DNA from: Piper betle
Lineage: Eukaryota > Streptophyta > Magnoliopsida > Piperales > Piperaceae
Assembly (NCBI GenBank): GCA_033002965.1
Contig: JAURVB010012608.1
Coordinates: 310,001-374,000 of the forward strand
Length of the DNA: 64,000 nucleotides
Reading direction: 5' to 3'
Each line of letters opens with the position of its first letter. Position 1 is the stretch's first letter. Below, in pieces: positions 26,073 to 53,212 of the stretch. The notes under the pieces are model-generated. The model was not told where the DNA came from and did no database searches. It saw only the letters and a list, made by a program, of their open reading frames with translations. Position numbers and translations under genes: made by a program.

Positions 26073-26557
26073 TTATGAAATTAATAGTATATCTTAATCC
26101 ATATTTTTATTATTAAGCTTCGTATGTACCCAGTGTACCGCATTAGTTTTTGGCTAATTACATTATAACATGAATAATTTTGGGTCCACTATTAAACCTT
26201 TTCATTAGTCAAGTCCCCTTTGTAATAAGCAAGATATATATACATATATGCTTTTAATGAGTACAGTAATTTATAGAAACATAATCAAATATCATCGTTT
26301 TTCCAAATTATATAATTAGCAATCATGAATTGTAATATATAAAATTATTACAATTAATTTCACAAATACCATTTATTAATTATAAAATATATTTTTATTC
26401 CAAGGCAACTATCATTGAATTGAATGTTGGATATGATATTAGCAGATTAAATTAATCTTGTAACATTATTAACTAATAATGAGGGTTGATACTTGAGTTT
26501 ACGAGAGGCCGGTTTAAGACCAACTTTTTATTATATAAAATAGAGAAAACCTAAACC

Positions 26558-28531
26558 ATGATCGACGCCGACCAGCCACCGCCGGCGGACGCTGCCCAAC
26601 CGCCGGCGTCCTGGGAAACACCTTCCTCACCTAATCCACGCATCCAGGTATTCCGAACTTGATCCAGGGAATAAAGATCTTATCGAATTCCAACTTCTTT
26701 TTTTGTGTGTGGTAATTTTCATGTTCGAAAGTTGCCCCTTTCCGGCGCTACGAAATTTGTGGTTGTCCTATGTTTCTAAGTCCATGAAACCTTGTACAAG
26801 ATCCGAAACCTTGAAAATTTTTTTATTTTTTTTGTTTTTAATTTTTTGGGAACAGGGATTTGATAGGCGATGGCAGCTCCATTCAAACGAATTGCCCGAG
26901 ATTTGGATGCTGAGCGCCACCGTTTTATGGTGAGTGAGTATGGCATCATGCTGCTGCTGCTGCTGCTGAGTGGTGACTGTTTGTTTTATTGAAGTAGCTT
27001 GTTAAGCTTCGATGTGTCTGTTTTTTCAACTTGTTTGTGTGAAATAGCTATTTGTTGAATTTGGCTATTTTTCAACTTGTTTGTGCAAAAATAAACAGTG
27101 TTCGGTAATGTTTTGTTTGATACCACTCGGTTATCCTCTTTAGTAGTTTCTTTATTTATCGCTTAATTTTGTTTCGAATTTGTTCCCCATTGCTTTGCAG
27201 TCGTCTAGCATTAAAGATATGTACCAAAGGCCTAAGCGAGTAGAGTCTGCGGTTCAGGAAGACGCCGACAATGAGGAATTGGACATAAGGAAATTGCTCA
27301 AGGACGTTCATAATTTTGGTAGGAATCCAACAACATCGGAATGTTTCTGTCAATTTTTTTTCTTTAGAGATGCCATGCCTTGCCGGTACAAAAATAGCTT
27401 CTTTAAATTATGGTGACACCTGACAAGCAGACAAGGCATACAAGTTAGGGCAATACTTTGATAGAAGTGTGGGAGGGTTCTGCAATTCATTATTTTTATC
27501 AGTTAGAAATTAGATGTGTTGTTCTATTCGTGCTTTTCATAAAATGATATTGCCATCCTGCAAAACATGATTGCTCTGCAAACTGATTGTCTATTCTGTC
27601 TCAAATTTGTCACTTGTATTTTGAGATTGACACAGCCGGATAGTTTCTTGTTAACTTTATGGAAAGTGTGGTGAAACATGTGGATTTTTTTCCTCCAAAT
27701 ACTTGTGCAAAATCTGAGTTTACACATTAGGTTCAAGGATTGACAGTCTTGAAAGATTTCTCATTCAATGTGGAAAGATGAAATATCTTGGAGAGGATGT
27801 TGCCCAGGATCGTTTCACATTTTATAGTAATATGATCATCAGTTTAGTATCTTATTGCACATCAAAGTTGAAGTATTATTCCATGTTATGCATGATTTAA
27901 ATTTTCATTCTCACCACATGTTGTGTGAATCAACACTTTCGCTCCTGGAAAGTTTTATCAATGCAGTTAAGTCTTTTTTTTTAATTGACAACATTTTTGA
28001 TCTTGTTCAATTGTTTTAGGTTCATCACATATGAGCTGGAAAGAGAGAAAAAAGATTGAGGATAAAAATGTTCTTTCTTTGGGTGGGAAGGTAAGGTTAT
28101 CTCTTGATTTTATCACCTGCTGTGAAGTCCTTGAGATTACTATCTTATTATATTAAACATTTTTAAGTTCTTGTTCATTTTAACAGCCTTCAAAGAAGAA
28201 AAAAGTCCCACTTAACATCGCAAAGGCCACCATGAAAAATCGCAAGCACAAAGAGCAGAAATTGCTGCAGGAGGTTGGCAGTTTATATTTGGCTGGCCAT
28301 ATTTTCTTACTACCCCTTTGCAATTGACCTTATGTCCCCCTGTTTGTGTGCTTTCAGGGTTTTATTTTGGATAAGTTTGTAAAGCTTGGCGGTGGAAGAA
28401 ATGATAAATTGGAGAAGCGCAAACCAGTGGGAAGAGTACTCAAATCATCGGAGGGTCATTTTAGGAACGGAATATTGGATGTTAAGCACTTGTTGCGACC
28501 CGCTTCATCATCCAGAGGGAGAATAATGTAG
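26558..28531 (+). CDS. DUF4602 / C1orf131-like nucleolar protein, unit A copy, about 200 aa, basic tail lost
   Basis: Probable ribosome-biogenesis (small-subunit processome-associated) protein, judged by similarity to DUF4602/C1orf131. Exons: 26558-26647 (MIDADQPPPADAAQPP...), 26867-26929 (MAAPFKRIARDLDAERHRFM), 27201-27318 (IKDMYQRPKRVES... KDVHNFG), 28020-28090 (SSHMSWKERKKIEDKN), 28187-28273 (KKKKVPLNIAKATMKNRKHK) and 28358-28531 (SEGHFRNGILDVKHLLRPAS). Splicing exon 1 to 26867 uses the AG of GATAG; if not used, translation would begin at the ATG at 26870. One base is missing near 28520 relative to unit B, so the frame ends at TAG 28529-28531 and the lysine-rich tail (GKGKKGKKGRKSKKGVRKKH in unit B) is lost. 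The rest is open. Loss of the tail may affect nucleolar targeting (inference). Confidence 0.75.
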
Positions 28532-31078
28532 CAGGTAAGAATGGTAAGGGAAAGAAAGGAAAGAAGGGAAGGAAAAGTAAAAAAGGTGTCAGGAAGAAGC
28601 ACTGATATAAATTTGCAAGACCAAATGATGTTCTTGGCTTACTCTAAATTCAATTTGTTTACAAGATTTTGCTTCTTACATGTGAATGTATTATCTTAAC
28701 CATGGACGGATATGTGCGCTAGAAATTGAATATGTAGTCTAAATATTGAACTCTTTTGATTGAGCTTATATTTGCAGCCAATTTCAACATACGTGATAGA
28801 TATGTGAATGATTTTACGTTGTAGTAAGGTTTGTGAAGTATAACAAGATCAACATCCATTAAGGTCAATAGTAAATTTGCCAGATTTGGTAGGTCTCAAC
28901 TATCCTCGATAGTTTTTGAAGCTTGGGTACATAAATTAGAAGATGTTGTCTTCTCGTAATTCAAATAAAAAAACAGTGAGAATTCTTCCACCAATAAGGA
29001 CTAGTGCAAGATGAGCAATTGGTGTTTGCTTCCCTCATATCGACTTCATGTTTTCAGATGAACGGATGGATTCCTTGGCGAATCCATGAGGAGCATCAGA
29101 ACTACATCCCAGCCAGGGCATAAAAGAAAGGGAACTGTAACACGAGTCTAATTACATCGTTGCGGAACTAGTCACCCAATGTTGCCAAGCCAGAAAAAGG
29201 AGGCCAATGAAACAAAAACATCCCAGCTAGCAGGTAATAGTAATGCAGACTCGAGTATTTCTCACAACTCCTTAATTTCCCAAACAGAACTTTCACAAGG
29301 AAAACGCCCACGGTAATACACATGTCACCAACTTTGCCGTGAATCCTCCAAATATAAGTTTAGTCTACGTTCTTTAAGAACCTTTACATGCACAAGAAAA
29401 TCATCATGAACATGAAGAGCATCATCGTAGTTTCTTGTTTCGGATATAATACCATTTTCACTTCCATTAAGATTTATGAGCCCCGAGAACGTTCCTATTC
29501 AATATGGACTTTGCTGACCAGAAGATATCTGGGATGACCTTCCCGAGCCAGCCCCAGTGGCAGGTCGAGAAGCTAGACAGTGGCAATACAGAAGAACCGG
29601 CACATGCATTGCTCCAAGTGAAGTGACCCCATTTGTAGCACCTACACCAAAAAGAAGCCGCGAAATGGTGATCTCCATGGATAACACCCACTCCCGCCGG
29701 CGCAAGGTTGCAGCTTGCCGGTACTTTATCCGGCAAGCTTATCAGGGCTTCAAATAATTGGTCCCTTATATTACATGCAAGATGTAGCATCCAAAAACAG
29801 TGTTTGTGAAGCACCTTTTTTTCATATGAAATGAAGTGGTTCTTTCGGTGATAGATACTTACATTTAATTAGAAGATACTTGAAGTATAATTTAATTTTG
29901 TTAGCAAGATTGAATGATCTTTGTAATCATTTATATTTCTATTAATTATGGAATATAAGATTATGTAAAGATAGGATTGTATCAATTAGACAAATCCGAT
30001 CATCCTTAATTGGAGCCAATTTGATTTACCCCTAGCTTATAAATAAAGGCCTTCACAACACATCTAAATCATTGAATTGGAATCACATAAATTTGACTGT
30101 GGGGTACTGGAGATCAAGGTTTGCAGTCTTGGGCTCGCTCAATCGTCGTAAGAAGATAGAAACAAATAAGGTTTTACTTTTGTCTCTCATACTCTTTGGT
30201 TTTTTTTTCAATTTTTTTAGCGGCTCGCACTGTTTGAAGATGAACCTTTTTTAATGTTTATAAAATTGTGTATATTATATTAGCGTTCTACGTAATTTTT
30301 TTGTTCGGTTTTTTTGGGCTTCAAAATTTTCTTTGAAACTGGTTGTCTAAAATAACATTCTAACTCCAATTCAATATAATGAGTGAACAATGGGTTTTAA
30401 GATATCAGTGTTTTTTTTTAATATATGTTGAAACTTCGCATGCCCTCTCACATGACCGATGAGGGTCCCGTCAGTAGGACGCATTTCTGGGGAAAAAAAA
30501 CATCTTAATTTGTGTGAGGTTTCGAGAGGCCCATTTATGATTCTCATTCTTTCCACTTTGATTATGAAAAATTGTAATAAAGATGTTCTCAGAATAAGAG
30601 ATCAATTATAAACATCAAAAACTTCGCAGGCCAGTAATTAGTTCATATAATCATGTGTCTCAGTTCGGTTAGTCACAAGAAAATAAAGATATATATATAT
30701 ATATATATATGATGAGGTATAAACTAGTCATAGTCGTGCGAGAATAATCTGAGTGCATCACGTTTCTTGACATGAAGGTTCCCAAAAACTTATTGATTGA
30801 TGAGTAAATTTTACTGTATAACACAGGGTGATAAAATATAAATTACATTAAAAGGTGAATTCTCAATTTGAAGTAGATAGTTAACCACAATTTTACTTTT
30901 AGTTTTTGGCTGCAAAATCTGTAAGGGTGACACACTTCATGCAATATATTCACTTACGTGCACACCTCTCTACATATAGATTGATTGATATGCGAGCATC
31001 CTTCTTAGTTTTTTGCTTTAACTATAGCATAAATTACTACTATGCAACATGCCAGTACTGTTACTTCTCTGCTCCAGG
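28532..31078. other. Unit A region between the DUF4602 gene and small-gene copy A1
   Basis: Contains the 3' flank of the DUF4602 gene, an internal repeat shared with 32222-32394 (at 28770-28942), a possible solo-LTR-like block (about 29899-30170 with a TATAAATA box) and a (TA)n tract at about 30690-30709. The stretch 29480-29625 reads openly as FADQKISGMTFPSQPQWQVE then a stop, also in unit B, but I do not recognise it. Confidence 0.5.
28770..28942 (+). repeat. Internal direct repeat of unit A, copy 1 (partner 32222-32394)
   Basis: About 170 bp running from GCAGCCAATTTCAACATA to TTTTTGAAGCTTGGGTACAT is repeated in the same orientation 3.45 kb downstream with roughly 10% difference. Both copies recur in unit B at about 42176-42345 and 45619-45790. 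Confidence 0.85.
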
Positions 31079-31747
31079 ATGGAGGGACCAAAAAATAGCA
31101 GCCTCAGCAGCCCAGAAGAATCAAAAGTCATCTCTACCATTGAAGATTTTGGAAAACTAGCGACGGTATATATAGCATATATATTACGTGCTCCCAATTA
31201 TGTTAGACTAAACACTACTCTTGTGACGTTGGTCAATGCATTGCACACACAATGCATGGTCACTTATATGTATGTTATTGCCTACGTACCGCAGGAAGCT
31301 AGTTTTTATGCCCCAAAAAGTGTTACCAAAAAGGTGGAGGATGAAAACGACGCAGAAATTTTGGTGAAGAAGAAGAAGGTCGAGATGATTACTGTTATTA
31401 TTATAATAATCTCTACTACAGTGATGATGATGAGGTAAAGTTGTCAGCTTAATTTGCATTTGGTCCATTATATTGCTCATTTCTGATTTAATATATATTA
31501 TTAGTGATATTATATGGCTAAGTCTATAATATGTATGTATGTATAAGTTACGTGGAATTCTGGTTTGGTTGTGTTAAAGGAGGAAGTCCCAGTCAATTTT
31601 GATGAGGAAGACTATGAAAAACTCATGCCATACAAGAAACCTTTGGGGAAGAAGAAGCACCCAAAAAGCGACAAGCGGTGGGGGAAGGTTCTGAGGAGGA
31701 AGGTTGACAGTATGAGGAGTTTGAGAAATCATATTGAAGAAGATTAA
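31079..31747 (+). CDS. Unrecognised small lysine/acid-rich gene, copy A1 (putative multi-exon)
   Basis: I do not recognise this family. ATG at 31079 opens MEGPKNSSLSSPEESKVIS then TIEDFGKLAT, ending at a GT near 31164. A second segment after ACCGCAG (31294) reads ASFYAPKSVTKKVEDENDAE, then in another frame RDDYCYYYNNLYYSDDDE before GT at 31436, implying a frameshift or a changed exon limit. A last segment reads VPVNFDEEDYEKLMPYKKP then KKKHPKS and RRKVDSMRSLRNHIEED with TAA at 31745-31747. The composition (acidic then lysine-rich) suggests a small nuclear protein, but that is only a guess. Five related copies lie in the window. Expression is unproven. Confidence 0.45.
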
Positions 31748-31841
31748 ATTTGATTATCGCCGCTGATCATTGATTTTTCTTCTGAAGTATATATGTTTAG
31801 ATTATCATACGTAATGAAGTTTTGTGATCTCTATGTGTGGG

Positions 31842-31887
<46 letters not shown>
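31842..31887. repeat. (TA)n microsatellite, unit A
   Basis: A long uninterrupted TA tract directly downstream of small-gene copy A1. The matching tract in unit B (about 45231-45269) has a different length and a TATG-rich end, so it has changed since the duplication. Confidence 0.9.
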
Positions 31888-31890
<3 letters not shown>

Positions 31891-32221
31891 CAACTCAAAC
31901 GTTTCGATCGACTTTTAATATGATAAATATGGGTTGTATGTTTTTTTGGTATTAATTGTTATTATGTGACTGCGAGTTCCAATTTCAAATGATCATAATT
32001 TCATTGTTAAGTTAATTTCCCTTAATTTCATTGTGGTTTGGTCGTGCACTTTGGGTTTATATTATAATATTTTTTTTAAAAATATGGGTTTATACACCCA
32101 AGCTTAATTTGGTAGGACGTATATGGGAAGACACACAGTGGAGAGCTTTTTTCTTTTTTCTTCATTTTACCCTTCTTTTGATTGAGCTTTAGATGGACTA
32201 TTTAAGTGAATGGGCTAGTCT

Positions 32222-32394
32222 ATTTGCAGCCAATTTCAACATATGTAATAGATATTTGAATGATTGTACTTTGATGTAGTAAGGTTTGTCAATTATAACA
32301 AGATCAACATCCACTAAGGTCATTTGTAAATTTGGCAGATGTGGTAGGTCTCAACTATCCTCTATAGTTTTTGAAGCTTGGGTACATAAATTAA
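32222..32394 (+). repeat. Internal direct repeat of unit A, copy 2
   Basis: Partner of the 28770-28942 copy. It follows copy A1 of the small gene as the first follows the DUF4602 gene, so each repeat lies just behind a gene's 3' flank. Confidence 0.85.
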
Positions 32395-33121
32395 AGTTCA
32401 TTATGCGCGAAGGTGTTGGCTTTCTAATCGAACCAAGAACCGGGGCTAGTCCATGATGAGCATTTGAGGTGGCTTCGTTTATTAAATTGAACATGAGGAT
32501 TCCTCCGCAAAGCCACTAGAAGTATTAGAACCAAACTTATTTTTTACTCCAAAAGTTGTCTTAGTTAACTCGAATTCGTACATTTTAAACTAAATTTCAT
32601 GAATAATTCTATATTAATTAATTTTATAATTGAATTACTGATTTATACTATAATAATTCCAAGTTGGCTTAGAGGACTCAGAGGCAACTTCACTGAGTTT
32701 TTAAACAATAATAAGAACTGATTAGTGAAACCATATGATTGTTGGCTGAAGCTTATGGATCTCGCCGCCCCAAGCCACTAGAAGATTTATGTAAACAGGT
32801 AAGAGTAACACTATCCCCCTTGTGTACTACAACTATCATCATCTCAAACATTTCAACTGTGGACAGAAAATGAGAAATATATAAGGATAAATAAATTTGA
32901 AAGAGCAAGTTGAACCATAATTTTACTTTTAGTCTTTGGCTACAAAATCTATAAGATAGGAATTCGTGACACACTTCATGTCATATACTCACTTACGTGC
33001 ACACCTATATTTTTATACATTGATTGATATACAAGCATCTTTCTTAGATTTTTGGTTTAAATATAGTATAAGTTACTTCTCTACAACATGCTAGTACTGT
33101 TACTTTGCAATATCAATAAAC

Positions 33122-33527
33122 ATGTCGGGACTGAAAAATAGCAGCCTGCAACTGCCTAGAAGAAACAAAAGTCATCTCTATTATTGAGGATTTTGGAAAA
33201 CTAGTGACAGGTATGTATATGTAGAATACTACGTGCTCTTAGTTGTGGTAGAATAAATACTACTTTTGTGAATCCATGGCGCTTATGTGTATGTGTGAAT
33301 AAGTTACATGGAATTATGGTTTGGTTGTGTTAAAAGAGGAAGATGAAGTTAATTTTGATGATGAAGGCTACGAAAAACTGATGCCAAACAGGAAACCGTT
33401 TGGGGAAGAAGAAGCACCCAATAAGCCACAAATGCCGGGGAAAGTTGTGGAGAGGAATGTTGACATGATGAGGAGTTTGATAAATCAATGGAACAGCCTA
33501 AAATTTGATATCGCAGCTGATCAATGA
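33122..33527 (+). pseudogene. Small-gene family copy A2 (left arm of the inverted repeat), frameshifted
   Basis: Starts MSGLKNSSLQLP at 33122. An extra base relative to A1 in the CCTAGAAGAAAC segment (about 33158) then puts the following VISIIEDFGKL sequence out of frame. The last segment (33321-33527) is open: EEDEVNFDDEGYEKLMPNRK then EEEAPNKPQMPGKVVERNVD. The exon with the YYY/DDDE stretch found in A1 is absent. Confidence 0.6.
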
Positions 33528-33729
33528 TTATGCATTTGGCTTGGGTTTTTCTTTGGTAGTATTTTTAGACAATCATATTTATCAAAGTTAATTTTCGAAG
33601 TTGAACTTTTGAGTTGAACATTTACATATATAACCCACACATAGAGCTCAGAAAATTTCATTAAATATATATGATAATCTAAAAATATATACTGCCATAG
33701 AAAAATCTAGGCCAAATGCATAATTATGA

Positions 33730-34128
33730 TCAGCTGCAATAATCATATTTAAGCTTCTTCAATAGATTTCTCAAACTCTTTATACAGTCAACCTTCCTCT
33801 TCAGAACTTCCCCCTACATTTGTGGCTTTTTCGGTGCTTCTTCTTCTTCGTGGGTTTCTTGTATGACATCAGTTTTTCGGTCTTTTTCACCAAAGTTAAC
33901 TTGGTACTTCCTCCTTTAACACAATCAAACCAGAATTTCATGTAGCTTATTCTCACACTCACACATAAGCGCCATGAATTGACAAGAGTAGTATTTATTC
34001 TAACACAACTGAGAGCACGTAGTATGCTATATATACATACAAATCACTAGTTTTCCAAAATCCTCAATAATAGAGATGACTTTTGTTTCTTCTAGGCAGT
34101 TGAAGCTGTTGTTTTTTGGTCCCTCCAT
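33730..34128 (-). pseudogene. Small-gene family copy A3 (right arm of the inverted repeat), broken
   Basis: On the minus strand the start at 34128 gives MEGPKNNSFNCLEETKVISI and IEDFGKLVI in frame. The downstream segment is out of frame: GKLTDVIQETHEEEEAP-type and KLMSYKKPTRKKKHRKSHK-type readings alternate, and it ends LLKKLKYDYCS at 33730. A separate DDDE-type exon (TDYCKLCYNDDDE) lies upstream on the same strand at 34455-34500, the reverse of the order in A1, so the copy was rearranged as well as inverted. Confidence 0.55.
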
Positions 34129-34488
34129 GCTTGTTGACATTGTAAAGTAACAGTACTAGCATGTTGCAGAGAAGTAATTTATACTATAGTTAAAACAAAA
34201 AGCTAAGAAAGATGCTCGTATATCAATCAATGCATGTAAATAGAGGTGTGCACGTAAGTGAGTATATGGCATGAAGTGTGTCACCAATTCCTGTCGTGTA
34301 GATTTTGTAGCCAAAGACTAAAAGTAAAATTATGGTTCAACTACCTCCTTCAAATTTCTTTATCCTTATATATTTCTCATTTTCTGAGCAATGGACCTGC
34401 ACTAAATCTGCAGATTAGTGGACAAAATACGAATTAGTTGACAGCTTGACCTCATCATCATCGTTGTAACAGAGCTTACAGTAATCAG

Positions 34489-36780
34489 TTGGATTTTCTT
34501 CATTTCCATCATTTTTACCCTCCACCTATTTCATTACAACTGGGGCTTGAAAACGGGAGACATATGAGCGACCACACATTAGTGTACGTTCAATGCATTG
34601 GCAAAGTCATAAGAACATTGAGGGGTGTTCGAAGGGCTGATTTTTTATTTCATCCTACCGAGGAGGACCTTTTCTCCTTCCTCTTGAATAAGATGAAAGG
34701 GAACGAGACTTCTGACGTGCTTGTGTATGATGTTCCTATTGCATTTCTTCCTGACCCTGACAAATTCCAAGTTTTTTTCATTAATTTATTTATCTTTATT
34801 TTTTATGTACATATGAATTAAATAAATTTCAACTATTATAATATAAATCGTAGGAATTTTTGGTTCTGACAGCGAAGTAGAAGAGGTTTACTACTTCTTC
34901 ATCCGACCTTTCCAACAAGAATCCAAAAAACTTAAGGTCGGATAATGACAGATGAAGAATAAGAAAGTGATCTACATCACACATCTGTCTAATAAGATTG
35001 GAAAGAAATTGTTCTACAGATATAATCTGCCCGAATATGTATTTTTTGTCCTCTATTGCATTTATACAGTATCGTTGCTGTCACCTAGTCTTTTTGGTTT
35101 ATTTTTGTAGGCACCAATCAAATGTTTGTATATTTTTGCGTGATAGAAGTAAATGGATGTTGGTTTTATATACTTTGGACAAGCTCTCCAGAAATGTTTC
35201 TGACAACCTTCATGTTCTTTTGTGCTATCAATAATGATGGTTAATTGTACTATGGTAGTTTTGACACTATTAGTTCTCTGTGTATAGTTCGATTGGTGAT
35301 TTGCATGATCGACGATCGTCCTATTACTGTAAATTTGGATGAATTCGGTCTTCATCCCCATAATGCTAACAAGCGCAGGTTTTTATTTTTATTTTAAAAC
35401 AGTTTTGCATTAAATTTTATCATTTAGTTAAATTCACAATATTTTTTACAGGCATGAGCCCGGATCAAATAACTCCTGTAACTGTAGGACTGCAACAAAT
35501 TATGGTTATGTTTCTTTGGATAACATTAGTCTGGATATGCACACTTTTTATCCCAGAACAATGTCTGTAGACAATTATGCTCAGTTTGGACATACAATTG
35601 AAGGTTTGTTTTCCTTGGAAAGCACATATTGGACAATTTTATCATCACTTAAGGGTGTTACTACTATTTGTTCTAAGTGGTGCCCAAGTTTGATGTGCTA
35701 TAGTTTTTGGAAGTTTTGAGGATTACTGTTTTTTTGTGTGTGATTGACAGACAATTGAAGGAAGTTTTTTGTAACTGGAAAGCACATATTAGACAAATTA
35801 TATCAACAACATTTAACCTGTGGGCTAGCTCCCAATGATGCAAATGTTTGATTTGCATATGGTTTTTTGAATGTCTGAAGTTCTGTGAATTAATGATTTT
35901 TTTTAGGTCTGCGTAAATTCTGAGCTGGAACCTTATTCAAAGGTATCTATACTGTGCCACTTTTTGATGAAAGATTTTGTTCTTTCTCTTTAGTAGGCAA
36001 TTCAATGTTTCAAATCGACGCATTGTTCTCCGAGGTTATGGAGAAGTAAATTTTTTCTGATTTCAACACTTTTCAATTACTAAATTTCTTTGGCAGGTCC
36101 TAGTGACCATGAGTGTCATCCTGGAGTAGGTTTGGAGGTGGCCTTGTTATATATTTTTATTTGTTTCATTGTTTAGAGGTGGTGTTTCTGCAAACACTTG
36201 CTGGTCTTCAGATCTCTGTTTGGGATAATTCATGTGATGAAAAGTTTGTATTATATTAGTTAAGCTTCCACTTTTTTAGGTATTATATTAGTTAAGCATC
36301 GAAATTGCTATTCAACAGAAATCATTTTGGTGCACTACAAACTACCTCCAAATTAGCCACTATGATGTTCAATTAAACGTTTACAAAATTTTAAAAACTA
36401 CACAAATGTTGTGTCATGAGTAGTTTAAAAGATACATTTTAATTGTATAGATAAACGTTTATTTAAGTATGAGACAGGTTATAAATACTAAGCAAGATAT
36501 CACTCTATAGCAATACCGATGCCGGATATATTTTTATTTTTATTTCTATATGTACTTTTATTAAAAAATTAAATAGACTGTAATAATAATTTATCTTAAA
36601 TATAGACTGTGATGTATTTGATATATCCTATTTGAATGAAAAGATGAATTATAATTATTTTATTTTTTATTATATTAGTTAAGCTTCCACTTTTTTTCTA
36701 TATTACTAATGAAAAATGGCAATTTTTCAGGTAAACAGTTTCATGAGTTTTTGGTGGTTCATATTGGAGGTAAGGCAATT
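34489..36780 (+). pseudogene. NAC-domain-like gene remnant, unit A
   Basis: The open stretch 34564-34780 contains ADFLFHPTEEDLFSFLLNKM followed by KGNETSDVLVYDVPI, which resembles NAC subdomain A (family: GFRFHPTxEEL) and the start of subdomain B. Next, 34857-34945 reads IFGSDSEVEEVYYFFIRPF (family: WYFF) and stops. Later possible exons with good borders are 35451-35608 (HEPGSNNSCNCRTATNYGYV... SVDNYAQFGHTIE), 35909-35940 (VCVNSELEPYSK), 36097-36126 and 36731-36768 (VNSFMSFWWFILE, a possible membrane segment). Subdomains C-E are not convincing. NAC proteins are DNA-binding transcription factors; this copy looks incomplete. Confidence 0.5.
36135..36283 (+). repeat. Dispersed repeat, copy 2 (unit A)
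   Basis: Shares GAGGTGGTGTTT, ATAATTCATGTGA and ATTATATTAGTTA in order with 12560-12722 upstream of the PDLP-type gene. The unit B partner at 49440-49590 is near-identical. Confidence 0.6.
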
Positions 36781-37133
36781 GTTTCGCATGGAAGTCAGAA
36801 CAGTGGTAGATGTTGTTGTCTTTCCTGTTCTTTCTAGCTTTTTGCTTCATTCTAAATTTAGATGAAAATGAATCCCCTTTCCCATAGCTACTTCATTGCA
36901 GGGACGAGGACAAAAGAGATGGACTATGTCCACTCTCGGACAATCAGCTGCCCTTTTCTGCGCCAAGGATTAAAACTGGTGTCAAGACGTATCACCAAGC
37001 TAGGCTCCTAATAGGCATTTGCCAATGTCCTTTAGTCCATATTCTTTTAGTCACCATTCTTCTCATTAGTCAAGCTAGGCTCCTAAAGGATGTTGAAGAG
37101 TAAGATGTAATATGTTGTAGAAATAATAAAGAG

Positions 37134-38164: not shown

Positions 38165-38400
38165 TTTTAGAATATTGACTCGAGTCAGGACCGAATCAAG
38201 TTTTTATTGACTCAAGTCGGGATTGAGTCAAGCTTTTATTGACTTGACTTGAGTTGAGACCGAGTCAATTTTTTATTGACTTGACTCGAGTCGAGATCGA
38301 TTAAAGTTTTTATTTAATTGACTCGATTCGAGACCGAGTCAAATTTTTATTAACTTGACTCGAGTCGAGGCCGAGTATAGTTTTTATTAGCTTGAGTCGA
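38165..38400. repeat. Tandem array of about six GACTCGAGTC-containing units
   Basis: Degenerate repeats of about 35-40 bp, each consisting of a GACTCGAGTCGAGACCGAGT-like block followed by CAAGTTTTTATT. The inner GACTCGAGTC is a palindrome. Units differ by several substitutions. The array ends in the GC-rich patch. A shorter match (GACTCGAGTTAGACTCGAGT) lies at 52543 inside the hAT element. Confidence 0.8.
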
Positions 38401-38870: not shown

Positions 38871-39955
38871 ATCCAGTAGTTAATGAAGCATGCACTGCCA
38901 AAAATTGCTATATATATATATATATATTATACTATTCTATTCTATTATATATAGGTAGACATTATTTTTCTCCTTGTCAACTCCTTCCGTTAAAGCGTCA
39001 GAAGTCATTGCATTTCAACCAAACTTGTATTGTGGTTAATTCTAATCTGACTGTATAATACTTATTTAATTTGAAATTAATAATATTATTTTATTTATTC
39101 ATTTATTAAGAAAGTGTTAGACTATAATTTTATTCAAATTATGAATTTTAAAAATATTGATAAATTTTTATATATTTGTAATTAAACTATTTGAATTAAA
39201 ATATTTTCTTTCTTAATAATACATGCTTAGTTTAAATTTTTACATAATTTTATTTATTTGTATATTTGTGTATTGCTATTTATTATTAACAAATAACTTA
39301 AAGTATAATTTTGTCCAAACTGAAAATCTTTTAAAAATCAATTCAATTTAATTATTGAAAAATTTTACTTGTTAAAATTAAAAATTGCTTTTAATATTTG
39401 TATGTAACTATATTTTTTGTTAAAATTAAATGAATATTTATAATTTTTATTTAAAAAATATAATAATATTTTATGAAATTAATTGTATATCTTAATCTGT
39501 ATTTTTATTCTTAAGCTTCCTATGTTCCTTGTGTACCGCATTAGTTTTTGGCTAATTACATTATAACATGAATAATTTTGGGCCCACTATTAAACCTTTT
39601 CATTAGTGAAGTCCCCTTTGTAATAAGCAAGATATATATACATATATGCTTTTAATGAGTACAGTAATTTATAGAAACATAATCAAATATCGCCGTTTTT
39701 CCAAATTATATAATTAGCAATCATGAATTGTAATATATAAAATTATTACAATTAATTTCACAAATACCATTTATTAATTATAAAATATATTTTTATTCCA
39801 CGGCAACTATCATTGAAGTGAATATTAGATATGATATTAGCTGATTAAATTAATCTCGTAACATTATTAACTAATAATGAGGGTTGATACTTGAGTATAC
39901 GAGAGGCCGGTTTAAGACCACTTTTTTATTAAATAAAATAGAGAAAATCTAAACC

Positions 39956-42008
39956 ATGAACGACGCCGACCAGCCACCGCCGGCGGACGCTGCCCAACCG
40001 CCGCCGTCCTGGGAAACACCTTCCTCCCCTAATCCACCCATCCAGGTATTCTGAACTTGATCCAGGGAATAAAGATCTTATCGAATTCCAACTTCTTTTT
40101 TTGTGTGGTAATTTTTATGTTCAAAGGTTACCCCTTTCCGGCGCTACGAAATTTGTGGTTGTTCTATGTTTCGAAGTCCACGAAACCTTGTACAAGATCC
40201 GAAACCTCCAAAAATATTTATTTTTTTTGTTTTAATTTTTTGGGAACAGGGATTTGATAGGCGATGACAACTCCATTCAAACGAATTGCCCGAGATTTGG
40301 ATGCTGAGCGCCACCGTTTTATGGTGAGTGAGTATAGCATCATGCTGCTGCTGCTGCTGCTGCTGCTGCTGAGTGGTGACTGTTTGTTTTATTGAAAGTA
40401 GCTTGTTAAGCTTCGATGTGTCTGTTTTTTCAACTTGTTTGTGTGAAATAGCTATTTGTTGAATTTGGCTATTTTCCAACTTGTTTGTGCAAAAATAAAT
40501 AGTGTCAGGTAATGTTTTGTTTGATACCACTCGGTTATCTTCTTTCGTAATTTCTTTATTTATTGCTTAATTTTGTTTCGAATTTGTTCCCCATTGCTTT
40601 GCAGTCGTCCAGCATTAAAGATATGTACCAAAGACCAAAGCTAGTAGAGTCTTCGGTTCAGGAAGACGCCGACAATGAGGAATTGGACATAAGGAAATTG
40701 CTCAAGGACGTTCATAATTTTGGTAGGAATCCAACAACATCGGAATGTTTCTGTCAATTTTTTTTCTTTAGAGATGTCATGCCTTGCCGGTACAAAAATA
40801 GCTTCTTTCAATTATGGTGACACCTGACAAGCAGACAAGGCATTCAAGTTAGGGCAATACTTTGATAGAAGTGTGGGAGGGTTCTGCAATTCATTATTTT
40901 TATCAGTTAGAAATTAGATGTGTTGTTCTATTCGTGCTTTTCATGAAATGATATTGCCATCCTGCAAACAACATGATTGCCCTGCAAACTGATTGTCTAT
41001 TCCGTCTCAAATTTGTCACTTGTATTTTGAGATTGACACAGCCGGATAGTTTCTTGTTAACTTTATGGAAAGTGTGGTGAAACATGTGAATTTTTTTCCA
41101 CCAAATACTTGTGCAAAATCTGAGTTTACACATTAGGTTCAAGGATTGACAGTCTTGAATGATTTCTCATTCAATGTGGAAAGATGAAATATCTTGGTGA
41201 GGATGTTGCCCAGGATCGTTTCACATTTTATAGTAATATGATCATCAGTTTAGTATCTTATTGCACATCAAAGTTGGAGTATTATTCCATGTTATGCATG
41301 ATTTAAATTTTCATTCTCACCACATGTTGTGTGAATCAACACTTTTGCTCTTGGAAAGTTTTATCAATGCACTTAAGTCTTTTTTTTAATTGACAACATT
41401 TTTGATCTTGTTCAATTGTTTTAGGTTCATCACATATGAGCTGGAAAGAGAGGAAAAAGATTGAGGATAAAAATGTTCTTTCTTTGGGTGGGAAGGTAAG
41501 GTTATCTCTTGATTTATCACCTGCTGTGAAGTCCTTGAGATTACTATCTTATTATATTAAACATTTTTAAGTTCTTGTTCATTTTAACAGCCTTCAAAGA
41601 AGAAAAAGTCCCACTTAACATCGCAAAGGCCACCATGAAAAATCGCAAGCACAAAGAGCAGAAATTGCTGCAGGAGGTTGGCAGTTTATATTTGGCTGGC
41701 CATATTTTCTTGCTACCCTTTGCAATTGACCTTATGTCCCCCTGTTTGTGTGCTTTCAGGGTTTTATTTTGGATAAGTTTGTAAAGCTTGGCGGTGGAAG
41801 AAATGATAAATTGGAGAAGCGCAAACCAGTGGGAAGAATACTCAAATCATCGGAGGGTCATTTTAGGAACGGAATATTGGATGTTAAGCACTTGTTGCGA
41901 CCCGCTTCATCATCCAGAGGAGAAAATAATGTAGCAGGTAAGAATGGTAAGGGAAAGAAAGGAAAGAAGGGAAGGAAAAGTAAAAAAGGTGTCAGGAAGA
42001 AGCACTGA
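39956..42008 (+). pseudogene. DUF4602 / C1orf131-like gene, unit B copy, frameshifted in exon 5
   Basis: Same six-exon structure as unit A: 39956-40045, 40261-40323, 40605-40722, 41425-41495, 41591-41676, 41760-42008. Exon 5 is 86 nt instead of 87 because one A is missing from the lysine-codon run (about 41606). The frame changes from KKKKVPLNIAKA to KKKKSHLTSQRPP and stops at TGA 41636-41638. The last exon keeps the complete tail that unit A has lost, ending GKGKKGKKGRKSKKGVRKKH before TGA at 42006-42008. Exon 2 begins MTTPFKR instead of MAAPFKR. As written, the product would be about 130 residues and lack the C-terminal half. Confidence 0.8.
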
Positions 42009-44476
42009 TATAATTTGCAAGACCAAATGATGTTCTTGGCTTACTCTAAATTCAATTTGTTTACAAGATTTTGCTTCTTACATGTGAATGTATTATCTTA
42101 ACCATGGACGGATATGTGCGCTAGAAATTGAATATGTAGTCTAAATATTGAACTCTTTTGATTGAGCTTATATTTGCAGCCAATTTCAACATACGTGATA
42201 GATATGTGAATGATTTTACTTTGTAGTAAGGTTTGTGAAGTATAACAAGATCAACATCCATTAAGGTCAATAGTAAATTTGCCAGATTTGGTAGGTCTCA
42301 ACTATCCTCGATAGTTTTTGAAGCTTGGGTACATAAATTAAAGATCTTGTCTTCTCGTAATTCAAATAAAAAAACAGTGAGAATTCTTCCACCAATAAGG
42401 ACTAGTGCAAGATGAGCAATTGGTTTTTTGCTTCCCTCATATCGACTTCATGTTTTCAGATGAACGGATGGATTCCTTGGCGAATCCATGAGGAGCATCA
42501 GAACTACATCCCACCCAGGGCATAAAAGAAAGGGAACTGTAACACGAGTCTAATTACATCGTTGCGGAACTAGTCACCCAATGTTGCCAAGCCAGAAAAA
42601 AGGAGGCCAATGAAACAAAAACATCCCAGCTAGCAGGTAATAGTAATGCAGACTCGAGTATTTCTCACAACTCCTTAATTTCCCAAAGAGAACTTTCACA
42701 AGGAAAAGGCCGCACGGTAATACACATGTCACTAACTTCGCCGTGAATCCTCCATATATAAGTTTAGTCTACGATTCTTTAAGAACCTTTACATGCACAA
42801 GAAAGTCATCATGAACATGAAGAACATCATCGTAGTTTCTGGTTTCGGATATAATACCATTTTCACTTCCATTAAGATTTATGAGCCCCGAGAACGTTCC
42901 TATTCAATATGGACTCTGCTGACCAGAAGATGTCTGGGATGACCATCCCAAGCCAGCCTCCCCAGTGGCAGGTCGAGAAGCTAGACAGTGGCAATACAGA
43001 AGAACCGGCACATGCATTGCTCCAAGTGAAGTGACCCCATTTGTAACACCCACACCAAAAAGAAGCCGGGAAATGGTGCTGTCCATGGATAACACCTGCT
43101 CCCGCCGGCGCAAGGTTGCAGCTTGCCGGTACTTTATCCGGCAAACTTATCAGAGCTTCAAATAATTGGTCCCTTATATCTCTTACGTGCAAGATGTAGC
43201 ATCCAAAAACCGTGTTTGTGAAGCACCTGTTTTTCATTTGAAATGAAGTGGTTCTTTCGGTGATAGACACTTACATTTAATTAGAAGATACTTGAAGCAT
43301 AATTTAATTTTGTTAGCAAGATTGAATGATCTTTGTAATCATTTATATTTCTATTAATTATGGAATATAAGATTATGTAAAGATAGGATTGTATCAATTA
43401 GACAAATCCGATCATCCTTAATTGGAGCCAATTTGATTTACCCCTAGCTTATAAATAAAGGCCTTCACAACACATCTAAATCATTGAATTGGAATCACAT
43501 AAATTTGACTGTAGGGTACTGGAGATCAAGGTTCGCAGTCTTGGGCTCGCTCAATCGTCGTAAGAAGATAGAAACAAATAAGGTTTTCTTTTGTCTCTCA
43601 TACTCTTGTTTTTTTTTCAATTTTTTTAGCGGCTCGCACTGTTTGAAGATGAACCTTTTTTTAATGTTTATAAAATTGTGTATATTATATTAGCGTTCTA
43701 CGTAATTTTTTTGTTCCGTTTTTTTGGGCTTCAAAATTTTCTTTGAAACGGGTTGTCTAAAATAACAGTCTAACTCCAATTCAATATAATGAGTGAACAA
43801 TGGGTTTTAAGATATCAGTGTTTTTTTTAATATATGTTGAAACTTCGCATGCCCTCTCACATGACCGATGAGGGTCCTGTCAGTAGGACGCATTTCTGGG
43901 GAAAAAAATCTTCTTAATTTGTGTGAGGTTTCAAAAGGCCCATTTATGATTCTCATTCTTTCCACTTTGATTATGAAAAATTGTAATAAAGATGTTCTCA
44001 GAATAAGGATCAATTATAAACATCAAAAACTTTGCAGGCCAGTAATTAGTTCATATAATCATGTGTCTCAGTTCGGTTAATCACAAGAAAATAAAGAAAT
44101 ATATATATGATGAGGTATAAACAAGTCATAGTCGTGCGAGAATAATCTGAGTGCATCACGTTTCTTGACATGAAGGTTCCCTAAAACTTATTGATTGATG
44201 AGTAAATTTTACTGTATAACACAGGGTGATAAAATATAAATTACATTAAAAGGTGAATTCTCAATTTGAAGTAGATAGTTAACCACAATTTTACTTTTAG
44301 TTTTTGGCTGCAAAATCTGTAAGGGTGACACACTTCATGCAATATATTCACTTACGTGCACACCTCTCTACATATAGACTGATTGATATGCGAGCATCCT
44401 TCTTAGTTTTTTGCTTTAACTATAGCATAAATTACTACTATGCAACATGCCAGTACTGTTACTTCTCTGCTCTAGG
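42009..44476. other. Unit B region between the DUF4602 gene and small-gene copy B1
   Basis: Mirrors 28532-31078 of unit A: internal repeat at 42176-42345, the unrecognised open stretch near 42900-43030, and the solo-LTR-like block at about 43313-43580. No further gene is recognised. Confidence 0.5.
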
Positions 44477-45135
44477 ATGGAGGGACCGAAAAATAGCAGC
44501 CTCAGCAGCCCAGAAGAATCAAAAGTCATCTCTACCATTGACGATTTTGGAAAACTAGCGACGGTATATATAGCATATATATTACGTGCTCCCAATTATG
44601 TTAGACTAAACACTACTCTTGTGACGTTGGTCAATGCATGGTCACTTATATGTATGTTCTTGCCTACGTACCGCAGGAAGCTAGTTTTTATGCCCCAAAA
44701 GTGTTACCAAAAAGGTGGAGGATGAAAACGGCGCAGAAATTTTGGTGAAGAAGAAGAAGGTCGAGATGATTACTGTTATTATTATAATAATCTCTACTAC
44801 AGCGATGATGATGAGGTAAAGTTGTCAGCTTAATTTGCATTTGGTCCATTATATTGCTCATTTCTGATTTAATATATATTATTAGTGATATCATATGGCT
44901 AAGTACATATATGTATGTATGTATGTATGTATAAGTTACATGGAATTCTGGTTTGGTTGTGTTAAAGGAGGAAGTCCCGGTCAATTTTGATGAGGAAGAC
45001 TATGAAAAACTCATGCCATACAAGAAACCTTTGGGGAAAAAGAAGCACCCAAAAAGCCACAAGCCGTGGGGGAAGGTTCTGAGGAGGAAGGTTGACAGTA
45101 TGAGGAGTTCGAGAAATCATATGGAACAAGATTAA
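44477..45135 (+). CDS. Unrecognised small lysine/acid-rich gene, copy B1
   Basis: Counterpart of A1: MEGPKNSSLSSPEESKVIS from 44477, the VEDEN... DDYCYYYNNLYY... DDDE segment (about 44680-44815) and VPVNFDEEDYEKLMPYKKP ending in MEQD with TAA at 45133-45135. A run of 8-10 bp in the intron near 44635 is missing relative to A1, and one A of the CCCCAAAAAGTG run has been lost at the second segment's start, so that segment's frame differs. Function unknown; the product is real only if the segments are spliced. Confidence 0.4.
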
Positions 45136-45229
45136 ATTTGATTATCGCCGCTGATCATTGATTTTTCTTTTGAAGTATATATGTTTAGATTATCATACGT
45201 AATGAAGTTTTGTGATCTCTATGTGTGGG

Positions 45230-45230
<1 letters not shown>

Positions 45231-45269
<39 letters not shown>
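45231..45269. repeat. (TA)n microsatellite, unit B
   Basis: TA tract followed by TATG repeats, at the position equivalent to 31842-31887 in unit A but of different length. Confidence 0.9.
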
Positions 45270-45281
<12 letters not shown>

Positions 45282-46251
45282 ATACATATTCAGCTCAAAC
45301 GTTTCGATCGACTTTTAATATGATAAATATGGGTTGTATGTTTTTTTGGTATTAATTGCTATTATGTGACTGCGAGTTCCAATTTCAAATGATCATAATT
45401 TCATTGTTAAGTTAATTTCCCTTAATTTCATTGTGGTTTGGTCGTGCACTTTGGGTTTATATTATAATATTTTTTTTAAAATATGGGTTTATACACCCAA
45501 GTTTAAGCTGGTAGGACGTATATGGGAAGACACACAGTGGAGAGCTTTTTCTTTTTTTCTTCATTTTACCCTTCTTTTGATTGAGCTTTAGATGGACTAT
45601 TTAAGTGAATGGGCTAGTCTATTTGCAGCCAATTTCAACATATGTAATAGATATTTGAATGATTGTACTTTGATGTAGTAAGGTTTGTCAATTATAACAA
45701 GATCAACATCCACTAAGGTCATTTGTAAATTTGGCAGATGTGGTAGGTCTCAACTATCCTCTATAGTTTTTGAAGCTTGGGTACATAAATGCGCCAAGGT
45801 GTTGGCTTTCTAATCGAACCAAGAACCGGGGCTAGTCCATGATGAGCATTTGAGGTGGCTTCGTTTATTAAATTGAACATGAGGATTCCTCAGCAAAGTC
45901 CACTAGATGTATTAGAACCAAACTTATTTTTGACTCCAAAAGTTGTCTTAGTTAACTCGAATTCGTACATTTTAAACTAAATTTCACGAATAATTCTATA
46001 TTAATTAATTTTATAATTGAATTACTGATTTATACTATAATAATTCCAAGTTGGCTTAGAGGACTCAGAGGCAACTTCACTGAGTTTTTAAACAATAATA
46101 AGAACTGATTAGTGAAACCATATGATTGTTGGCTGAAGCTTATGGATCTCGCTGCCCCAAGCCACTAGAAGATTTATGTAAACAGGTAAGAGTAACACTA
46201 GCCCCCTTGTGTACTACAACTATCATCATCTCAAACATTTCGACTGTCGGA

Positions 46252-47780
46252 CAGAAAATGAGAAATATATAAGGATAAATAAATTTGAAAGAGCAAGTTG
46301 AACCATAATTTTACTTTTAGTCTTTGGCTACAAAATCTATAAGATAGGAATTCGTGACACACTTCATGTCATATACTCACTTACGTGCACACCTATATTT
46401 TTATACATTGATTGATATACGAGCATCTTTCTTAGATTTTTGGTTTAACTATAGTATAAGTTACTTCTCTACAACATGCTAGTACTGTTACTTTGCAATA
46501 TCAATAAACATGTCGGGACTGAAAAATAGCAGCCTGCAACTGCCTAGAAGAAACAAAAGTCATCTCTATTATTGAGGATTTTGGAAAACTAGTGACAGGT
46601 ATGTATATGTAGAATACTATGTGCTCTTAGTTGTGTTAGAATAAATACTACTTTTGTGAATCCATGGCGCTTATGTGTATGTGTGAATAAGTTACATGGA
46701 ATTATGGTTTGGTTGTGTTAAAAGAGGAAGATGAAGTTAATTTTGATGATGAAGGCTACGAAAAACTGATGCCAAACAGGAAACCGTTGGGGAAGAAGAA
46801 GCACCCAATAAGCCACAAATGCCGGGGAAAGTTGTGGAGAGGAATGTTGACACCATGAGGAGTTTGATAAATCAATGGAACAGCCTTAAATTTGATATCG
46901 CAGCTGATCAATGATTATGCATTTGGCTTGGGTTTTTCTTTGGTAGTATGTTTAGACAATCATATTTATCAAAGTTAATTTTCGAAGTTGAACTTTTGAG
47001 TTGAACATTTATATATATAACCCACACATAGAGCTCAGAAAATTTCATTAAATATATATGATAATCTAAAAATATATACTGCCATAGAAAAATCTAGGCC
47101 AAATGCATAATTATGATCAGCTGCGATAATCATATTTAAGCTTCTTCAATAGATTTCTCAAACTCTTTATACAGTCAACCTTCCTCTTCAGAACTTCCCC
47201 CTACATTTGTGGCTTTTTTGGTGCTTCTTCTTCCTCGTGGGTTTCTTGTATGACATCAGTTTTTCAGTCTTTTTCACCAAAGTTAACTTGGTACTTCCTC
47301 CTTTAACACAATCAAACCAGAATTTCATGTAGCTTATTCTCACACTCACACATAAGCGCCATGAATTGACAAGAGTAGTATTTATTCTAACACAACTGAG
47401 AGCACGTAGTATGCTATATAATACATACAAATCACTAGTTTTCCAAAATCCTCAATAATAGAGATGACTTTTGTTTCTTCTAGGCAGTTGAAGCTGTTGT
47501 TTTTCGGTCCCTCCATGCTTGTTGACATTGCAAAGTAACAGTACTAGCATGTTGCAGAGAAGTAATTTATACTATAGTTAAAACAAAAAACTAAGAAAGA
47601 TGCTCGTATATCAATCAATGCATGTAAATAGAGGTGTGCACGTAAGTGAGTATATGGCATGAAGTGTGTCACCAATTCCTGTCGTATAGATTTTGTAGCC
47701 AAAGACTAAAAGTAAAATTATGGTTCAACTACCTCCTTCAAATTTCTTTATCCTTATATATTTCTCATTTTCTGAGCAAT
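46252..47780. repeat. Long inverted repeat of unit B with small-gene copies B2 (+) and B3 (-)
   Basis: Same architecture as 32860-34395: left arm about 46252-46970 with copy B2 (start MSGLKNSSLQLP at 46512, open tail to about 46914), short spacer, right arm about 47030-47780 with copy B3 on the minus strand (MEGPKNNSFNC start near 47517). The paired arms have survived in both units with only scattered changes. Confidence 0.88.
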
Positions 47781-47885
47781 GGACCTGCGCTAAATCTGCA
47801 GATTAGTGGACTAAATACAAATTAGTTGACAGCTTGACCTCATCATCATCGTTGTAACAGAGCTTACAGTAATATTAGTAATCAG

Positions 47886-50105
47886 TTGGATTTTCTTCAT
47901 TTCCATCCAAAATTTCCGCATCATTTTTACCCTCCACCTTTTTCATTACAACTGGGGCGTGAAAACGGGAGACATATGAGCGACCACACATTAGTGTACG
48001 TTCAATGCATTGATCTTTTATCCTTCCTCTTGAATAAGATGAAAGGGAACGAGACTTCTGACGTGCTTGTGTATGATGTTCCTATTGCATTTCTTCTTGA
48101 CCCTGACAAAATTTCAGGGTTTTTTTCATTAATTTATTTATCTTTATTTTTTATTTACATATGAATTAAATAAATTTCAACTATTATTATATAAATCGTA
48201 GAAATTTTTGGTTCTGACAGTGAAGTAGAAGAGGTTTACTACTTCTTCATACGACCTTTCCAACAAGAATCCAAAAAACTTAAGGTCGGATAATGGCAAA
48301 TGAAGAATAAGAAAGTGATCTACATTACACATCTGTCTAATAAGATTGGAAAGAAATTGTTCTACAGATATAATCTACTAATGTCAACCCCGAATACGTA
48401 TTTTTTGTCCTCTATTGCGTTTATAAAGTATCGTTGCTTGCGTCTATCAAATGTTTGTATATTTTTGCGTGATAGAAGTAAATGGATGTTGGTTTTGTAT
48501 ACTTTGGACAAGCTCTCCAGAAATGTTTCTGACAACCTTCATGTTCTTTTGTGTTATCAATAATGATGGTAGTTTTGACACAATTAGTTCTCTGTGTATA
48601 GTTCGATTGGTGATTTGCATGATCGACGATCGTCCTATTACTGTAAATTTGGATGAATTCGGTCTTCATCACCACAATGCTAACAAGCGCAGGTTTTTAT
48701 TTTTATTTTAAAACAGTTTTGCATTAAATTTTATCATTTAGTTAAATTCACAATATTTTTTACAGGCATGAGCCCGGATCAAATAACTCCTGTCAGGACT
48801 GCAACAAATTATGGTTATGTTTCTTTGGATAACATTAGTCTGGATATGCACACTTTTTATCCCAGAACAATGTCTGTAGACAACTATGCTCAGTTTGGAC
48901 ATACAATTGAAGGTTTGTTTTCCTTGGAAAGCACATATTAGACAATTTTATCATCACTTAAGGGTGTTACTACTATTTGTTCTAAGTGGTGCCAAAGCTT
49001 GATGTGCTATACTTTTTGGAAGTTTTGAGGATTACTGTTTTTTTGTGTGTGATTGACAGACAATTGAAGGAATTTTTTGTAATTGGAAAGCACATATTGG
49101 ACAAATTATATCAACAACATTTTAACCTGTGGGCTAGCTCCCAATGATGCCAATGTTTGATTTGCATTTGGTTTTTTGAATGTCTGAAGTTCTGTGAATT
49201 AATGTTTTTTTTTAGGTCTGCGTAAATTCTGAGCTGGAACCTTTTTCAAAGGTATCTATACTGTGCCACTTTTTGATGAAAGATTTTGTTCATTCTCTTT
49301 AGTAGGCAATTCAATGTTTCAAAGCGACGCATTGTTCTCCGAGGTTATGGAGAAGTAATTTTTTCTGATTTCAACACTTTTCAATTACTGAATTTCTTTT
49401 GGCAGGTCCTAGTGACCATGGGTGGCATCCTGCAGTAGGTTAGGAGGTGGCCTTGTTATATATTTTTATTTGTTTCATTGTTTAGAGGTGGTGTTTCTGC
49501 AAACAATTGCTGGTCTTCAGATCTCTGTTTGGGATAATTCATGTGATGAAAAGTTTGTATTATATTAGTTAAGCTTCGACTTTTTAGGTATTATAGTAGT
49601 TAAGCATCGAAATTGCTATTCAACAGAAATCATTTTGGTGCACTAACTGAAACTACCTCCAAATTAACCACTATGATGTTCAATTAAACATTTACAAAAT
49701 TTTAAAAACTATGCAAATGTTGTGTCATGAGTAGCTTAAAAGATAAATTTCAATTGTATAGATAAACGTTTATTCAACTATGAGAGAGGTTATAATTACT
49801 AGAGCAAGATATCACTCTATAGCAAGACCTATGCTGGATATATTTTTATTTTTATTTCTATATGCACTTTTATTTAAAAATTAAATTGACTGTAATAATT
49901 TATCTTAAATAGAGACTGTGATTTATTTGATATATCCTATTTGAATAAAAAGATGAATTATAATTATTTAAATTTTTTATTATATTAGTTAAGCTTCCAC
50001 TTTTTTAGGTATTATATTAGTTAAGCTTCCACTTTTTTCTATATTACTAATGAAAAATGGCAATTTTTCAGGTAAACAGTTTCATGAGTTTTTGGTGGTT
50101 CATAT
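47886..50105 (+). pseudogene. NAC-domain-like gene remnant, unit B
   Basis: Counterpart of 34489-36780. About 66 nt (22 codons) have been removed in frame at 48011, deleting the FHPTEED motif and leaving LLSFLLNKMKGNETSDVLVY. A 5-nt loss near 48793 shifts the exon reading HEPGSNNSC, which then stops at TAA. The YYFFIRPF and VNSFMSFWWFILE pieces remain. This copy is more damaged than the unit A copy. Confidence 0.5.
49440..49590 (+). repeat. Dispersed repeat, copy 3 (unit B)
   Basis: Unit B partner of 36135-36283. Confidence 0.6.
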
Positions 50106-50415
50106 TGGAGGTAAGGCAATTGTTTCGCATGGAAGTCAGAACAGTGGTAGATGTTGTTGTCTCTCCTGTTCTTTCTAGCTTTTTGCTTCATTCTAAATTT
50201 AAATGAATATGAATCCCCTCGCCCATAGCTACTTCATTGCAGTGATGAGGACAAAAGAGATGGACTATGTCCACTCTGGGACAATCAGCTGCCCTTTTCT
50301 ACGCCAAGGGTTAAAACTGGTGTCAAGACTTATCACCAAGCTAGGCTCCTCATAGACATTTGCCAATGTCCTTTAGTCCATATTCTTTTAGTCACCATCC
50401 CTTCTCATTAGTCAA

Positions 50416-52163: not shown

Positions 52164-52199
52164 CCCACACAAATTAGATATATGTCCATAGCAAGAGAA

Positions 52200-53206: not shown

Positions 53207-53212
<6 letters not shown>

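What the first reader, a model, noticed from the sequence alone, without database searches (positions are those of the whole stretch)
32860..34395. Long inverted repeat of a small gene family, kept in both units: a candidate hairpin siRNA / proto-miRNA locus
Seen: two arms of about 0.72-0.75 kb, separated by about 60 bp, are reverse complements and carry copies A2 and A3 of an unrecognised small gene. A sense-oriented relative, A1, lies 1.8 kb upstream. The structure is present again at 46252-47780. Known: inverted gene duplications make long hairpin RNAs that DCL enzymes cut, and they are the proposed origin of young plant MIR genes. Inference: this locus may silence A1/B1 or other family members in trans. 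It is the best candidate here for an undescribed regulatory system.
Basis: partly seen in the sequence, partly recalled or inferred. Interest (0 to 1): 0.78.

Follow-up and report, generated by a model that had tools for sequence, protein, structure and literature searches.

The report
Decayed inverted copies of plant gene
Two broken copies of a small plant gene lie tail to tail and could form a long RNA hairpin if transcribed, but the sequence tests run here show no clear sign that this has been kept for a purpose, so it looks like an ordinary relic of gene duplication.

Summary
The inverted repeat (IR) is real: 32864-34386, arms about 85% alike, centre near 33625, again at 46252-47774. The second copy is not independent: it came with a tandem duplication (26073-37073 / 39471-50415). 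Contig C4841, a colinear segment mostly 80-88% alike, holds the same IR with the same centre, so the IR predates that split. There the hairpin has decayed: much of the right arm's outer half is lost or replaced, predicted MFE is -544 against -922 kcal/mol, and helices of 21 bp or more number 1 against 8. In the window the outer arm halves look homogenised (L-R 90% outside, 81% in exon 3, 70% innermost), and both arms share an exon-2 deletion that C4841's left arm lacks.

Tests for selection are mostly negative: no compensated change (0 of 16 columns), paired sites changed about as often as chance predicts, and divergence from C4841 no lower than in the flanks. Low divergence between the tandem units is the exception. 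The proposed targets A1 and B1 have disrupted frames. Identity to A1 (79-82%) resembles the soybean I locus, so trans-silencing is possible but unshown; nothing supports a microRNA. Verdict: an old, pseudogenised inverted gene duplication, at most a candidate hairpin-siRNA locus of a known kind.

The parts
32864..33625 (+). left arm (L1), degenerate sense copy A2 of the small gene: 5' flank, exon 1, exon 3, no exon 2
33625..34386 (-). right arm (R1), degenerate antisense copy A3, same exon-2 deletion
33585..33665 (.). approximate centre of the inverted repeat; innermost 79 alignment columns of the arms only 70% alike
31080..31750 (+). A1, sense relative with three exons; one frame disruption in exon 2 relative to the C3276 copy and P0001
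   Evidence: splice sites read by eye
34403..34560 (-). exon-2-like fragment outside the right arm
   Evidence: 34416-34554 aligned to L009 at 67%; for the unit-2 counterpart (47792-47943 against A1, 76%)
46252..47774 (.). the same inverted repeat in tandem unit 2
44470..45150 (+). B1, tandem copy of A1; frame disrupted (approximate limits)
26073..37073 (.). tandem unit 1
39471..50415 (.). tandem unit 2
26774..28600 (+). conserved neighbour gene with an FSAF1 domain (PF15375), copied in each tandem unit (limits approximate)

Best explanation
This is an old tail-to-tail inverted duplication of copies of a small three-exon gene. Shown: the same structure with the same centre lies on the colinear segment C4841, the two window copies have broken frames and no exon 2, and the structure was doubled by a tandem duplication. 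Well supported: it arose before the C9004/C4841 split. Inferred: the outer arm halves were homogenised at least once by arm-to-arm gene conversion, which also spread the exon-2 deletion. Inferred: if a promoter at either end reads through the centre, the RNA folds into a hairpin of about 0.7 kb that DCL2/3/4 could cut into 21-24-nt siRNAs, so a low-level or self-methylating siRNA locus is plausible. Nothing in the sequence shows clearly that such a product has been kept for a function.
For: Self-comparison. A genome-wide DNA search lists relatives on four contigs only (counts there are lower bounds). C4841 holds the same structure with the same centre and is colinear with the window at 26774-32452 and 50047-63997. 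Over exon 3 and the inner end L groups with C2 (89/94) and R with C3 (90/96), both short of the tool's star, and a tree with L+R as one clade is rejected (AU p 0.02). L-R differences are 39/407 outside against 45/236 in exon 3 (p 0.0009), while A1-L is flat (p 0.45). The deletion junction is shared by both arms; C4841's left arm keeps exon 2. Frames of both arms are broken. No compensatory change in 16 changed columns. Divergence from C4841: IR 17.6% centre and 19.0% outer left, spacer 16.1%, A1 13.2%, FSAF1 gene 11.7% (centre against spacer p 0.55, against A1 p 0.016). The hairpin has decayed on C4841.
Against: Between the tandem units the IR is among the least diverged parts (17/1522 = 1.12%; A1 2.05%, p 0.06; FSAF1 gene 2.18%, p 0.01; NAC-like part 3.61%, p 9e-7; adjacent spacer 1.47%, p 0.46), which could mean constraint or conversion between units. 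Unit 2's hairpin has changed less: of the 12 pair-changing columns unit 1 is the unpaired one in 10, and in the IR centre 5 changes polarise to unit 1 and 0 to unit 2 (p 0.06), against 35 and 32 in the FSAF1 gene. The outer-half tree alone does not prove conversion (AU p 0.17 for L+C2, 0.18 for R+C2). An exon-3-only tree left the deep forks unresolved. No expression data exist here.
Confidence: 0.72

Rival explanations
1. An active endogenous inverted-repeat siRNA (endoIR-siRNA) locus that silences A1/B1 or other family members in trans, like the soybean I locus.
For: Hairpin fold with 8 helices of 21 bp or more, the longest 59. Against the A1 locus 4 of 971 21-mers match the unit-1 IR perfectly and 221 of 971 within two mismatches. 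The intact copy E1 shares one perfect 25-nt stretch with the unit-1 IR, upstream of its start codon. In soybean the triggers are only 82% similar to their targets, share at most 20 contiguous nt and act with 1-2 mismatches (PMC3804491 passages). Low unit1-unit2 divergence of the IR.
Against: Frame disruptions in A1 and B1. Against E1 only 29 (unit 1) or 30 (unit 2) of 1160 21-mers lie within two mismatches, and unit 2 has no perfect one. The hairpin has decayed on C4841. No sign of selection on pairing. No known promoter or transcript.
Confidence: 0.2
2. A proto-MIR gene on the way to a single microRNA.
For: Inverted duplication of a gene is one proposed origin of MIR genes (PMC5223194 passages).
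Against: The hairpin still spans the whole arms rather than a short foldback, it is not kept on C4841, and the window has no Rfam match at gathering thresholds (a new miRNA would not be in Rfam).
Confidence: 0.04
3. A foldback or MITE-like transposable element.
For: Long inverted repeat with a short loop.
Against: Matches listed on four contigs of 11211, with gene-family homology (that search skips very common words and scores only the best candidates). The centre lies at the gene's 3' end.
Confidence: 0.02

Closest known systems
Arabidopsis endoIR-siRNA loci IR71 and IR2039
   Same: Long inverted repeat able to give a long stem-loop without an RDR enzyme (PMC4687873 and PMC5910406, passages seen).
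   Different: Those have demonstrated precursors and small RNAs; here neither is known, and the arms are about 85% alike.
Soybean I locus (inverted CHS1-3-4 clusters)
   Same: Inverted copies of a gene family with diverged family members elsewhere (82% in soybean, 79-82% here).
   Different: Soybean repeats are 10.91 kb, perfect, and silence CHS7/8 (PMC3804491 passages). Here the arms are 0.76 kb and decayed, and the neighbouring family members are frame-disrupted.
MIR1444, MIR161 and MIR163 (MIR genes from inverted duplication of targets)
   Same: Tail-to-tail inverted duplication of complete or partial gene copies (PMC5223194 passages).
   Different: No mature miRNA and no shortened foldback known here.

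Membership tests
endoIR-siRNA locus | long inverted repeat whose RNA folds into a long stem | tested here: met
endoIR-siRNA locus | transcript across the centre | not testable with these tools
   no expression data held
endoIR-siRNA locus | 21/22/24-nt siRNAs made by DCL enzymes without RDR | not testable with these tools
   no small-RNA reads held
trans-silencing gene-family IR (soybean I locus type) | enough identity to family mRNAs | tested here: met
   at the A1 locus 4 of 971 21-mers perfect and 221 of 971 within two mismatches; in its joined exons 3 of 380 and 60 of 380; soybean figure
trans-silencing gene-family IR (soybean I locus type) | working target genes | tested here: inconclusive
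   A1 and B1 frame-disrupted; C3276 copy looks intact but has few near matches, one of them 25 nt perfect; assembly errors not excluded
MIR gene of inverted-duplication origin | pairing kept in related copies | tested here: not met
   C4841 hairpin decayed; 0 of 16 changed columns compensated
MIR gene of inverted-duplication origin | precise miRNA/miRNA* excision | not testable with these tools
   needs small-RNA reads
foldback/MITE transposon | many dispersed copies | tested here: not met

The most novel reading that the evidence does not exclude
A hairpin trigger older than the duplication separating C9004 from C4841, refreshed by arm-to-arm gene conversion on C9004 and doubled by tandem duplication, still makes siRNAs that silence surviving family members, while the C4841 copy has lost that ability. 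Conversion between arms would then be what keeps an old hairpin from decaying.
Probability: 0.1. Interest if true: 0.5.

Novelty: new member of a known kind. Interest (0 to 1): 0.2.

Why it matters
As a relic it is a clear example of how an inverted gene duplication ages: one copy apparently homogenised by conversion, its counterpart eroded. If small RNAs were found, the pair C9004/C4841 would allow a direct comparison of a near-continuous and a decayed version of the same hairpin in one genome.

Tried and rejected
Rejected: independence of the second copy (it is a tandem duplicate); a transposon origin; a known RNA family (0 Rfam matches at gathering thresholds); A1 as source of the arms. On the last, the arms, C2 and the C3276 copy resemble each other before the start codon, whereas A1, C1 and D1 share a different, probably derived sequence; I read this by eye from the alignment and did not test it.

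Led nowhere: Pfam gives no family for the small gene's exons or P0001. Two protein searches gave 1 and 3 hits, all unnamed. The sigma-70/terminator scan does not apply to a plant. The DNA pattern was a poor composite and says nothing new. The species was not identified: I guessed pear and then Saururus from memory (paper searches) and neither is supported. A chalcone-synthase fragment of the genome scores best with PDB 6cqb, whose organism the call does not give. Outer-half tree tests did not by themselves prove conversion; an exon-3-only tree was unresolved. The paper searches served to find comparisons; I make no claim that anything is absent from print.

Full report
Observation. The window is G000:C9004:310001-374000 of an unnamed 527-Mb genome in 11211 contigs. 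The inverted repeat is real: 32864-34386 matches its own reverse complement at 84% over 1538 columns, and 46252-47774 does so at 85%; one shuffled window gives no minus-strand hit. As 762-base halves the arms are 85.2% (unit 1) and 86.3% (unit 2) alike. The second copy belongs to a tandem duplication, 26073-37073 and 39471-50415, whose main alignment is 96.5% identical. It therefore adds no independent evidence that the structure was kept.

Anatomy. A2 (+) and A3 (-) face each other tail to tail, each with the 5' flank, exon 1 and exon 3 of a small gene. The sense relative A1 has three exons (31080-31169, 31296-31436, 31580-31750; splice sites read by eye). Both arms share one exon-2 deletion junction, and their frames are broken. 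An exon-2-like fragment lies reversed just outside the right arm (34403-34560). The gene's exons and the related protein P0001 match no Pfam family. Upstream in each unit is a gene with an FSAF1 domain (PF15375, E 1.4e-9), and downstream a NAC-like fragment below Pfam's cut-off.

Relatives. A search of the whole genome lists relatives on C9004, C4841, C4931 and C3276 (its counts are lower bounds). C4841 is colinear with the window over 26774-32452 and again over 50047-63997, mostly at 80-88% (74-77% in two stretches), so it is a paralogous segment, probably from a larger duplication. It carries the same inverted repeat with the same centre. Its left arm keeps exon 2; its right arm keeps exon 3 and a remnant of exon 1, with unrelated sequence between (and reading). 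C4931 lies 94.7-98.3% from C4841 over the FSAF1 and A1 region, and no IR was found in the 3.4 kb held beyond A1; C8411 is 98-99% alike over the stretch upstream of A1. On C3276 a copy (E1) reads as an intact three-exon frame, whereas A1, B1, C1 and D1 each show frame disruptions or a lost start codon (read from three-frame translations); assembly error cannot be excluded. Three further unnamed proteins resemble E1.

History. Over exon 3 and the inner end, L groups with C4841's left arm (89/94) and R with its right arm (90/96), neither starred by the tool, and a tree with the window's two arms as one clade is rejected (AU p 0.02). Exon 3 alone left these forks unresolved. The inverted repeat therefore probably predates the split. 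In the outer part the window's arms are much closer to each other: 39 differences in 407 sites, against 45 in 236 in exon 3 (p 0.0009), while the distance A1 to L does not change (p 0.45). With the shared deletion this points to arm-to-arm gene conversion after the split; an exon-1 tree joins A2 and A3 without C2 (92/94). The outer tree cannot exclude the alternatives (AU p 0.17 and 0.18).

Is the hairpin kept? (a) Between the tandem units 16 ungapped arm columns changed (19 gapped columns set aside). None changed in both arms; 12 of 16 alter pairing, where 13.9 would be expected from the paired fraction 640/737 (P 0.15 for 12 or fewer). In 10 of the 12, unit 1 is the unpaired one. (b) Against C4841 the IR has diverged by 17.6% (centre) and 19.0% (outer left), the spacer 16.1%, A1 13.2%, the FSAF1 gene 11.7%; the centre does not differ from the spacer (p 0.55) and exceeds A1 (p 0.016). 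(c) Predicted RNA: unit 1 -921.8, unit 2 -948.4, C4841 -544.4, an A1-region control -341.9 and three mononucleotide shuffles -309.9 to -325.4 kcal/mol; helices of 21 bp or more 8, 8, 1, 0 and 0. Against this reading, the IR is among the least diverged parts between the tandem units (17/1522; against A1 p 0.06, the FSAF1 gene p 0.01, the NAC-like part p 9e-7, the adjacent spacer p 0.46, three stretches of 30038-32863 pooled p 0.09), and unit 2 has changed less than unit 1 in the IR centre (0 against 5, p 0.06) though not in the FSAF1 gene (32 against 35). Constraint and conversion between units both remain possible.

Could it silence A1/B1? For A1, 4 of 971 21-mers match the unit-1 IR perfectly and 221 of 971 match within two mismatches; for B1 1 and 210 of 961. 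In soybean the CHS triggers are only 82% similar to CHS7/8, share at most 20 contiguous nt, and work with one or two mismatches (PMC3804491, passages). So trans-silencing cannot be excluded on identity. The nearest targets look like pseudogenes. The intact copy E1 has only 29 (unit 1) or 30 (unit 2) of 1160 21-mers within two mismatches, but one stretch of 25 nt, upstream of its start codon, is perfect in unit 1 and not in unit 2.

Known kinds. Long inverted repeats that give siRNAs without an RDR are an established class (endoIR-siRNAs, IR71 and IR2039; passages of PMC4687873 and PMC5910406). Inverted duplications are a proposed source of MIR genes (passages of PMC5223194 and PMC3086885). Of PMC6710647 I saw the outline and abstract; of PMC6395616 two passages. 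This locus meets the structural feature of the siRNA class only; transcript and small RNAs are untested.

Verdict. Ordinary but real: an old inverted gene duplication, pseudogenised, apparently partly homogenised, doubled by a tandem duplication. It is a candidate hairpin-siRNA locus only in the sense that any such structure is.

Noticed in passing
26073-37073 and 39471-50415: Tandem duplication with a repeat distance of about 13.4 kb, carrying an FSAF1-domain gene, the A1/B1 gene, the inverted repeat and a degenerate NAC-like fragment.
   Followed up: partly
L011 (C3276), reverse strand 3301-4480: Intact-looking three-exon member of the small gene family; its relatives have no Pfam match; related unnamed proteins P0002-P0004.
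   Followed up: partly
L010 (C4931) 3545-4051: Exon 3 of the small gene is duplicated in tandem there (85% alike).
   Followed up: no
L009 6608-6755: Unrelated sequence interrupts the right arm on C4841; it begins much like a copia-type LTR boundary (recalled motif, not searched).
   Followed up: no
28769-28942, 32221-32396, 42171-42343, 45620-45790: A ~175-bp segment about 90-91% alike, in the FSAF1-gene region and again between A1 and the inverted repeat, also on C4841, C4931 and C8411.
   Followed up: partly
38175-38401: About six copies of a 37-bp tandem repeat between the two tandem units.
   Followed up: no
7986-8046: Perfect (GCG) microsatellite of about 20 copies.
   Followed up: no
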